From Fulvia fulva (Eukaryota > Ascomycota > Dothideomycetes > Mycosphaerellales > Mycosphaerellaceae), in assembly GCF_020509005.1 (NCBI RefSeq), contig NC_063023.1:2046001-2110000 (forward strand): a stretch of DNA of 64,000 bases, in the 5' to 3' direction. Below, in pieces: positions 41,601 to 44,304 of this stretch (positions are counted from its first letter, which is position 1; every line of letters begins with the position of its first letter). A model generated the notes under the pieces. It did no database searches and had not been told where the DNA came from. It saw nothing but the letters and a program-made list of their open reading frames with translations. A program made the translations under genes and the position numbers.

Positions 41601-44304
41601 TTCTGCATCGACAGGAAAGTGCATAGAAAGTTCTGTTTTGATTCCGACATGAGGAGGAATGGTACCTTTCTGTAGAACCAGGAGCGACTTGATGAGAGCC
41701 ATAATCCCAGCTGCAGCTTCTCCATGACCGACGTTTGCCTTCACTGAGTCAATGTAGAGCGGCTGAGCAAGAGATCGTGGACGCACCGATGGAGCAAATA
41801 CGCTTGTTACTGCCGCCAACTCTGTGGCGTCCCCAGATTGCGTTCCTGTTCCGTGGAACTCGACGTAGCCGACATCGCGAGCATCTAGGCCGGCCCGCCA
41901 GATGACCTGGCGATAGAGTTCTGCCTGAGAGGCCGTGTGTGGATGCGTGATCGAGACTGCTTCGGCGGAGTGGTTGGTGGCTGCCGAGAGGATGATACCG
42001 AGGACGTTGTCATTATCAGCTTCAGCATCTTCAAGCCTGTTCAGAACGACTGAGCCTACACCATCAGCTCGACAGTACCCGTCAGCTCCCTGTTAAAACG
42101 AACATTTATCAGCCTTCAAACGGTCTATTGCGTCTTCATCAGGAATATGGCCGCCTGACCAACTGGCACATACCTTGTCCCAAGTTTTGCAACCACCAGT
42201 CTTGGACAAGAAGTGTCCATGGCTCAAGCCTGCGTAAACATCGCAATTGGTCAAGACATTGAGTCCACCGACCACCAGCATATCGGCATCGTCTGCCCAG
42301 AGTGATGTACATGCCAGCTGCAAGGTAGCTAAACTGGAGCTGCATGCCGTGTCGCAACTGAAGCTAGGCCCCGAGAACTTGTTGAAGTAGTTGATGCGGC
42401 CTACTCAGCGTCAGTCTTATTATGCGGTCGATACAACATGGCCCACGTGCGAAACAGCACCACTTGCGGTGCGTTATGCTACTCAGAGATTCCCACAGCT
42501 TACCTGGTGCAAAAGCTCACCATCCTCCCGGTATGTAATATGTGCCGACATGCTGATTCGAGTTTGCTTCACGGTAATCATCGCTGGCCTGACCGTAGAA
42601 CGTGCCAACACGATGCGCGGATATCCTGCTGCTACCGGCAGTGTAGCCAGCATGCTCCAAAGCTTCGTGAGCAGTCGCTAATGCCAGACGATGCATCGGA
42701 TCAGTCTGCTCTGCCTCGCGTCGTGACATGGAGAGGAACGCAGCATCAAATAGGCCTGGCTCGTTGATAAAGCAGCCGTAGGGAGTCTTCGAGGTATTGC
42801 GAGTTTGCCCAGTGTGATCCACGTGAGTTTGTGCATCGAAGCGGTCTGCTGGTATCGTGCGATGCGCATCACGGCCCTCTGCGAGTAGATTCCAGAACTT
42901 ATTGACATCGTCTGCGCCGTCCGGAAAGCGGCAAGACATGCCGACGACTGCGATCTTGGAATGTGAGGGCCTACAGGCTTTGGTATTGTTGATATTCGGT
43001 CTCGTTGCAAGAGAGGGAGACATTTCCACGTCAGTCAATTCGAGGCTGGGCATTCGAGACCGTAGGCGAGATCTGAATTCATCGGCATGGCTGAAACGCC
43101 TGACCGTATATATCGTGCACCGCGCAGCTCCCAGAGAGGTCAACACACCCTCGACAGCGTCGACATCGACTTCCGATTTGATTTGCTTTGCGGAGAGATC
43201 CTGGTCGACTATCATACGAAATAGTTCAGTAGCCTTCGTTCCCGCGGGCACAAGCCCAGTGGTGGGAAGCACGAGTCGAGTGTGTAATGATGACTGCAAG
43301 TCGATGGCCGGGACGATCCATTCTGCGTCGCGAAATGTGTAGAGGTGGTCGGCATGAGTTGCTCCTTGAATCTTTGGCATAGGCACACATCTACTTTTGG
43401 TGGACTTCTTCAGTGCTGCGATGAGTCCTTTGATTGTCGAAGGCGGTCCCGATACGCTGACGGAGCTCTCTGTGGTATTGCAGATAAAGGCCGCACGATA
43501 TAGAGGCAGGTTCTGGATAGTCGGTTTAGACAGCACAACACCTTATTCGATAGAGACGATGCTTACCTGCGCAGTGTTGTACTTGTCGACTTCGCATTGT
43601 ACTGCCTGCTCTGTCAGACCGTGAACACAAGCAAGCCAGGCTTTCGACGAAGGAGATGAATGATCGGGAGCTTCGACACTTCCAGATACACGATCCACCA
43701 TGAGACCAGTCCTGAAAGCTATGCGAACAACGATCGCTGCAAGATATGCCAGCTCGCCGTGGCTTTTCGCGAGACCAAGACATGCCGCAGTCAGCAGGCC
43801 AATGCCCTTTCCCAACAAGCATGTCTGCCAGGCCTCATGCCGGATTGTTAAGGGAATTGATGGTTGCTCCCTTGAAATGCTCGTCAGCAAAGTGTCCAGT
43901 CCGGCGGAGCAGTGGGATACTGACACGAGAACCAGAGACATCTGGTAAACACAAGCGAGGGCTCGGTCTATGCTTCCGCCGATTCCTGTGTTTCGTAGTG
44001 CAACTACATGATGTGTCCAGTCTAGAATGTTGCCTACCCAGGGAAGAGTGTCCTGAACGTTCTTGGGAAGCTCGAATATCTCTTCCCGGATAGCATTCGT
44101 AGCTTGCCGAAGGAACCTCCCAAGATCTTCGTTGCCTGCAGCATGACTCAAAGTCCGAACTTTTCTGAAGACCTCAGCCATGTCACCCTCGGGATCACCT
44201 TGTGGTATCTCGCCCGAGAAGAAGTAGACATGAGCTTGGTCAGAACCTTTTGCTCGAGGACCGGGCTGAGCTGGCACGTTGGCAGTAGCATCATCTAGAT
44301 GCAT
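38657..44304 (-). pseudogene. non-reducing polyketide synthase SAT-KS-AT-PT-ACP with one in-frame stop
   Basis: Five exons (44304-43567, 43512-42504, 42400-42174, 42089-39903, 39853-38657) join in frame to 1,785 codons; introns are 54, 103, 84 and 49 bp. The order is SAT (1-246 and on), KS (about 436-860), AT, PT and one ACP, with no thioesterase. KS has DTACSS (Cys602), EFHGTGT (His737) and VKANVGHGE (His780). AT has GHSLGE (Ser1052). PT has EGHAMN (His1377). ACP has LGIDSL (Ser1746). Such enzymes build aromatic polyketides from malonyl-CoA. Codon 578 (42519-42517) is TGA where relatives have Arg in 'GG(C/N)RAF.PGRINY'; the flanking AFAPGRINYF is conserved, so the stop lies in an exon and splits KS before its cysteine. 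The SAT motif is GKGIG, lacking the usual Cys. The rest shows no decay, so a recent loss or a sequence error are both possible. Confidence 0.85.

What the first reader, a model, noticed from the sequence alone, without database searches (positions are those of the whole stretch)
42517..42519. Single in-frame TGA in an otherwise complete NR-PKS ketosynthase
Five exons of the synthase splice in frame to 1,785 codons with every catalytic motif in place, yet codon 578 is TGA. The residues around it (IPGGW-stop-AFAPGRINYF) match the family pattern GG(C/N)RAF.PGRINY, so the stop replaces a conserved Arg. One C-to-T change (CGA to TGA) explains it, next to a second oddity (TGG for the usual Cys/Asn codon). 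No frame-preserving splice choice that keeps the conserved block removes it. Either the gene was lost very recently, it is read through, it is corrected in transcripts, or the assembly is wrong.
Basis: partly seen in the sequence, partly recalled or inferred. Interest (0 to 1): 0.75.

Follow-up and report, generated by a model that had tools for sequence, protein, structure and literature searches.

The report
Fungal polyketide pseudogene with one stop
A tomato leaf mould fungus carries a polyketide-making gene broken by one stop codon; it is almost certainly a gene already reported as dead, so the finding is real but ordinary.

Summary
On the minus strand lies a SAT-KS-AT-PT-ACP non-reducing polyketide synthase without thioesterase, with an in-frame TGA at 42519-42517 inside the ketosynthase. 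Of 240 fetched proteins, 236 cover this position in sense, and all 236 have arginine there. The closest relative of this exon, 72% identical, is intact at the codon and has the next intron at the same place. By elimination among five complete non-reducing synthase loci, the gene is Pks9, which the 2012 and 2014 papers list as a pseudogene. Best explanation: loss of function by a nonsense mutation. Of 74 frame-keeping splices found around the stop, the mildest costs 18 residues. Two corrections follow. The public F. fulva protein 'PKS19' avoids the stop through a model that omits 23 conserved residues, so the databases hide the pseudogene. Known kind; low interest.

The parts
42517..42519 (-). 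In-frame TGA inside the ketosynthase domain (codon 560 of the corrected model)
   Evidence: Sequence and frame; Arg in 236 of 236 covering relatives
43925..44304 (-). Exon 1a (start of SAT)
   Evidence: Open frame from ATG; Pfam SAT; alignment to 12 relatives
43871..43924 (-).
   Evidence: 18 residues without counterpart in 12 of 12 relatives and absent from P0001
43567..43870 (-). Exon 1b (SAT)
   Evidence: Alignment
42504..43512 (-). Exon 2 (end of SAT, first part of KS, holds the stop)
   Evidence: Pfam ketoacyl-synt positions 2-132 upstream of the stop
42401..42503 (-). Native intron after the stop (GTAAGC...TAG)
   Evidence: Same position in relative P0122, whose frame runs out right after APG
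42174..42400 (-). Exon 3 (KS with active-site Cys block DTACSSS)
   Evidence: Pfam ketoacyl-synt 156-229
39903..42089 (-). Exon 4 (end of KS, AT, start of PT)
   Evidence: Pfam and NCBIfam
38657..39853 (-). Exon 5 (PT and ACP; ends in TGA; no thioesterase)
   Evidence: TIGR04532 207.7 bits against cut-off 168; PP-binding
45612..46697 (+). Divergent O-methyltransferase frame next to the synthase; link to the same pathway is only a lead
   Evidence: PF00891, E 1.6e-24; open frame

Best explanation
This is the F. fulva gene Pks9, a thioesterase-less non-reducing polyketide synthase inactivated by a nonsense codon in its ketosynthase. Translation ends after the SAT domain and about half of the N-terminal KS domain, before the active-site Cys and before AT, PT and ACP, so no polyketide can be made. 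The transcript is probably also degraded by nonsense-mediated decay. Shown here: the stop, its frame, the conservation of the position, the intact codon in the closest relative found, and that this is the fifth and only unassigned complete non-reducing synthase locus. Inferred: that other isolates share the stop, that no transcript bypasses it, and the fate of the mRNA.
For: Frame and position. Arg in 236 of 236 covering relatives. Close relative P0122 intact at the codon. Mildest frame-keeping splice loses 18 residues. Identity by elimination: contig 13 PksA type, contig 8 CTB1 type, two on contig 11. Pks9 listed as pseudogenised after manual checking in PMC3510045 (section read) and as pseudogene or truncated in PMC3895014 (passages). 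Public model P0001, from a contig whose length is not that of Race 5 Chr12, jumps over the same place. 10 residue differences between two isolates, and 14 against 5 lone changes at near-invariant columns.
Against: The rest of the frame is open and the splice sites look normal, so decay is slight. PMC3510045 says all key genes except Hps2, Nps7 and Nps10 had EST support in vitro, which by implication includes Pks9, so a transcript exists (section read). The 14 against 5 count is not strong by itself (two-sided sign test about 0.06, my arithmetic), and 26 further changes at near-invariant columns are shared with the relative, so much of the divergence is older than the stop. I saw no DNA of another isolate, and the Pks9 gene model of 2012 could not be compared.
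Confidence: 0.92

Rival explanations
1. The stop is removed by alternative splicing, as in the public model P0001 (intron 42572-42401) or from the GTGAGC donor at 42520, giving a shortened but useful enzyme.
For: P0001 is a deposited F. fulva protein with this jump. GTGAGC scores 6 of 6 on a simple donor consensus. The 2022 annotation used RNA-seq evidence (passages of PMC9453070).
Against: The P0001 jump uses a weaker donor (GTGAAG, 4 of 6) than the native GTAAGC (6 of 6) and omits 23 residues that 12 of 12 aligned relatives have. With GTGAGC the four frame-keeping choices among the 25 printed lose 18 to 28 residues of the KS core. Whether reads support the jump is not known to me.
Confidence: 0.04
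2. The stop is bypassed after transcription, by A-to-I editing or by ribosomal read-through.
For: Some filamentous ascomycetes correct premature stops by editing (abstract and passages of PMC11156358), and read-through at a UGA context is reported in fungi (title and abstract start of PMC4207609 in a listing).
Against: The correction described is UAG to UGG with strong preference for U before the A; in UGA that base is G, and the result would be Trp where 236 of 236 relatives have Arg. The base after the stop is G, not the CUA of the motif I recall. F. fulva is described as mainly asexual (passage), and the editing described is chiefly of the sexual stage.
Confidence: 0.02
3. The stop is an assembly or polishing error.
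For: A single codon in one assembly; reads were not available to me.
Against: P0121 ends at the same place and is counted on 2 contigs of at most 17,155 bases; Illumina polishing; Pks9 called pseudogenised in the older 0WU assembly. The origin of the two contigs is hidden and may be the same isolate.
Confidence: 0.02

Closest known systems
Pks9 of Cladosporium fulvum (PMC3510045, PMC3895014)
   Same: Non-reducing synthase without thioesterase, called pseudogenised, no conserved cluster around it, in the same species
   Different: Published as a name in strain 0WU; its sequence was not seen, so identity rests on elimination. The 2014 text places it with atrochrysone, monodictyphenone and endocrocin synthases; my tree puts it next to the PKS19-named group
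PKS19-named non-reducing synthases (Parastagonospora nodorum SnPKS19, alternariol; title seen in reference lists)
   Same: Same domain order; F. fulva gene is sister to a 9-row group that holds P0024 and P0020, support 100
   Different: 44% identity over the downstream piece; the F. fulva branch is very long (1.64), so its place is unsure; product unknown
ClaG/Pks6-like synthase of the same genome (contig 11 near 1.407 Mb)
   Same: Non-reducing, no thioesterase in the frame scanned
   Different: 37% identical to this gene, 58.5% to a named atrochrysone synthase, with a lactamase-type hit about 1 kb away

Membership tests
Fungal non-reducing polyketide synthase | SAT, KS, AT, PT and ACP in this order | tested here: met
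   SAT lacks the Cys of GxCxG, as do the 12 aligned relatives
Fungal non-reducing polyketide synthase | One uninterrupted coding sequence | tested here: not met
   TGA at 42519-42517
Pks9 of C. fulvum | Non-reducing, no thioesterase, not the cladofulvin synthase | tested here: met
   Fifth of five loci with SAT, KS and PT matches; the other TE-less one is Pks6/ClaG-like
Pks9 of C. fulvum | Sequence identity to the published gene model | not testable with these tools
   Supplements and 0WU gene models not available
Alternariol-type PKS19 group | Falls inside the group in a tree | tested here: inconclusive
   Sister, on a long branch; quick tree of 30 rows
Alternariol-type PKS19 group | Makes alternariol | not testable with these tools
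   Product unknown
RIP-inactivated gene | High RIP product and low substrate index | tested here: not met
   0.59, 1.27, composite -0.68 over the gene; thresholds in PMC3510045 are 1.2, 0.8, 1.0
Stop corrected by fungal A-to-I editing | UAG codon with U before the edited A | tested here: not met
   Codon is UGA; preference from PMC11156358

The most novel reading that the evidence does not exclude
The stop is regularly bypassed by in-frame splicing, as the deposited F. fulva model implies, so the fungus still makes a shortened ketosynthase with altered activity from a gene that looks dead.
Probability: 0.03. Interest if true: 0.5.

Novelty: already known. Interest (0 to 1): 0.15.

Why it matters
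It gives the probable lesion of a gene that the literature only calls a pseudogene, and shows that the public protein model (named PKS19, 1,744 residues) hides it by omitting 23 conserved residues. Genome-mining surveys that take the model at face value would count an intact synthase that probably does not exist. It adds one case to the pathway losses already described in this biotrophic tomato pathogen.

Tried and rejected
RIP as cause: rejected, the indices over the gene are far from RIP values. General reassignment of UGA: rejected, the same gene ends in TGA. Identity with Pks6: rejected. Exon 1 as one exon: rejected after alignment. Two further product-template matches above cut-off, on contigs 8 (3,250,082) and 7 (1,194,157), could have upset the elimination; neither has a KS or SAT match beside it, and Pfam finds only weak PKS dehydratase matches in them, so they are not complete synthases. 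A third match on contig 12 (2,235,953) is below cut-off. A DNA self-search for second copies of the gene and of a patch at 35750-36430 was tried three times each and never answered; single copy therefore rests on the family searches and on tblastn against 8 fetched loci (best 37%), not on a genome-wide DNA search. The 12 relatives of the alignment, the 23 of the rate count and the 27 database proteins of the tree were hand-picked for spread from the 240 listed; no row was dropped after a result. The splice enumeration was limited to donors up to 400 bases upstream and introns of 40 to 500 bases; 25 of 74 options plus the six with the native acceptor were printed. Searches mended this: 236, and G or A in first place (A in 5 of 12 relatives).

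Full report
What was checked. The finding places a TGA at 42519-42517 in a non-reducing polyketide synthase on the minus strand. The sequence confirms it: exon 2 starts at 43512, runs 331 codons and meets TGA. The residues before it (IPGGW) and after it (AFAPG, then RINYFNKFSGPS beyond the intron 42503-42401) belong to the conserved ketosynthase block. Pfam finds SAT, KS, AT, PS-DH and ACP in the exons; NCBIfam finds the fungal product template at 207.7 bits against a cut-off of 168; no thioesterase appears.

Which genome. The window is 2046001-2110000 of contig 12 of an assembly of 67,169,167 bases in 14 contigs. PMC10823647 prints that same total for Fulvia fulva Race 5 (passages). All six contig lengths that I saw (contigs 5, 7, 8, 11, 12, 13) equal those in Table 2 of PMC9453070 (section read).

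Corrected gene structure. I aligned the public F. fulva protein P0001, 12 relatives and two window pieces. The DNA there is a 54-base GT...AG stretch, 43924-43871, with CTGAC near its end. Being in frame, it is invisible by reading frame alone. Without it the gene has six exons and 1,767 codons, and the stop is codon 560. Its removal also takes away the Cys that could pass for the SAT nucleophile: where other SATs have GxCxG (recalled), the window has GKGIG and none of the 12 relatives has Cys.

How unusual the stop is. Two searches listed 240 proteins (the best 120 of 4,126 and the best 120 of 463). Of these, 236 cover the position in sense and all 236 have Arg (233 by one motif, three more with a variant motif). 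The remaining four are P0001, which skips the block; P0121, the window's own piece; and P0018 and P0101, which start downstream. The residue before is Cys in 234 of 236; the window has Trp. P0122, the closest relative of this exon (206 of 286 positions identical, unnamed contig), reads GGCRAFAPG and then leaves the conserved sequence at the place of the native intron.

Is it an error. P0121 equals the window's upstream piece, ends exactly at the stop and is counted on 2 contigs of at most 17,155 bases, so neither is the Race 5 chromosome. Their source is hidden and may still be Race 5 short reads. The Race 5 assembly was polished with Illumina reads. An error is unlikely but reads were not seen.

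Which gene. PMC3895014 counts five non-reducing synthases in the species: PksA, Pks1 and Pks7 with a thioesterase, Pks6 and Pks9 without; Pks9 is listed among pseudogenes or truncated genes, and no conserved cluster was found at its locus (passages). PMC3510045 lists Pks9 as pseudogenised after manual checking (section read). In this genome, matches to SAT, KS and PT coincide at five places. Contig 13: norsolorinic acid synthase type with thioesterase (2,938 bits to 8cg4). Contig 8 near 3.07 Mb: CTB1 type (1,687 bits to 6fij; the one frame scanned shows neither ACP nor thioesterase, although the paper gives Pks7 a thioesterase). Contig 11 near 1.138 Mb: with thioesterase. Contig 11 near 1.407 Mb: 58.5% identical to a named atrochrysone synthase, with a lactamase-type hit about 1 kb away, hence Pks6-like. 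The window is the fifth. A sixth place on contig 12 near 2.236 Mb has a KS match but only weak SAT and sub-cut-off PT matches. Two more PT matches above cut-off have no KS or SAT beside them. So the window gene is Pks9 by elimination; I could not compare it with the 2012 model.

Another isolate. P0001 ('Non-reducing polyketide synthase PKS19 [Fulvia fulva]', 1,744 residues, 7 member sequences) lies on a contig of up to 2,695,860 bases, while Race 5 Chr12 has 2,606,583. It differs from the window by 10 residues in the stretches compared (1 of 228, 4 of 314, 0 of 75, 5 of 1,127). It goes from DDYR straight to RINYF, which fits an intron 42572-42401 with donor GTGAAG and omits 23 residues that the 12 relatives have. 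I read this as a gene finder avoiding the same stop; that is inference, and RNA support for the jump cannot be excluded.

Can splicing rescue it. Within the limits searched, 74 GT-AG introns overlap the stop and keep an open frame; the mildest loses 18 residues. The donor GTGAGC at 42520 looks strong, but its four frame-keeping partners among the 25 printed options cut 18 to 28 residues out of the KS core. With the native donor the stop stays in the message.

Other ways round the stop. PMC11156358 (abstract and passages) describes fungal premature-stop correction as editing of UAG with strong preference for U before the A; here that base is G. The read-through motif UGA CUA is recalled (a listing shows related titles) and is absent: the next base is G. 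PMC10823647 calls the fungus mainly asexual (passage).

Signs of relaxed constraint. At columns where at least 22 of 23 relatives agree, the window alone has changed 14 times and the relative's pieces alone 5 times (10 against 5 in exon 4 with P0018, 4 against 0 in exon 2 with P0122); a two-sided sign test gives about 0.06 by my arithmetic. Another 26 changes are shared by both, and 5 columns changed differently, so the lineage was unusual before the stop. In a wider count P0001 departs alone at 66 of 433 columns that its 12 relatives hold invariant, other rows at 0 to 20, but it is also the most distant row. PMC10823647 gives 8,794 SNPs within 14,714 genes over five isolates, less than one per gene; ten residue differences in one 5.3-kb coding sequence is high, though the gene is long and SNPs are clustered in this genome. 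The gene shows no RIP signature. PMC3510045 reports in-vitro EST support for all key genes but three others, so Pks9 is transcribed.

Product. Unknown. A quick tree of 30 rows puts the gene beside a group with PKS19-named proteins, support 100, and outside the group with atrochrysone synthases. Its branch is very long and the tool warns that its place is unsure; the 2014 paper placed Pks9 with the latter. SnPKS19 is the alternariol synthase of P. nodorum by the title of a 2015 paper seen only in reference lists. An O-methyltransferase frame lies divergently next to the gene; the Alternaria alternariol cluster also has one (passages of PMC11022538). This is a lead, not a test.

Verdict. A real nonsense codon in a real gene, best explained as an ordinary pseudogene already noted in print. 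Added here are the place of the stop, the missed intron and the probable flaw in the public protein model. I found no paper that gives the position of this stop in three searches and the passages and sections read of six Cladosporium papers or related ones (PMC3895014, PMC3510045, PMC9453070, PMC10823647, PMC11694984, PMC9239057); supplements were not open to me, so it may be there.

Noticed in passing
43871-43924: In-frame 54-base intron in the SAT region; translated as exon it fakes a Cys-containing motif.
   Followed up: yes
P0001 (public F. fulva protein PKS19): Deposited model omits 23 conserved ketosynthase residues across the stop, so the gene appears intact in databases.
   Followed up: partly
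45612-46697: O-methyltransferase frame, divergent to the synthase, open over 361 residues.
   Followed up: partly
35926 (500-base window; patch about 35750-36430): Composite RIP index reaches 1.55 here; 13 of the 25-base-step windows of the whole 64 kb pass all three RIP thresholds. Copy number not learned (searches unanswered).
   Followed up: partly
L035:4571-5671 (-), L036:4122-5120 (-): Two frames match the fungal product-template family above cut-off (241.7 and 227.4 bits) with no KS or SAT match beside them: possible free-standing product-template proteins.
   Followed up: partly
P0018, P0122: Two pieces 69% and 72% identical to this gene on short unnamed contigs: an unnamed close relative whose copy is intact at the codon.
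   Followed up: partly
G000:C10:1844478-1845566: GH88 match with a TGA and a TAG inside; PMC3510045 reports one pseudogenised GH88 gene in the species. Introns not excluded.
   Followed up: no
L007 (G000:C11:2987907-2988770) and G000:C5:3501033-3501927: Other ketosynthase matches with stops inside, either introns or further broken synthases.
   Followed up: no
38657-44304: SAT of this gene and of the 12 aligned relatives lacks the Cys of the classical GxCxG site.
   Followed up: partly
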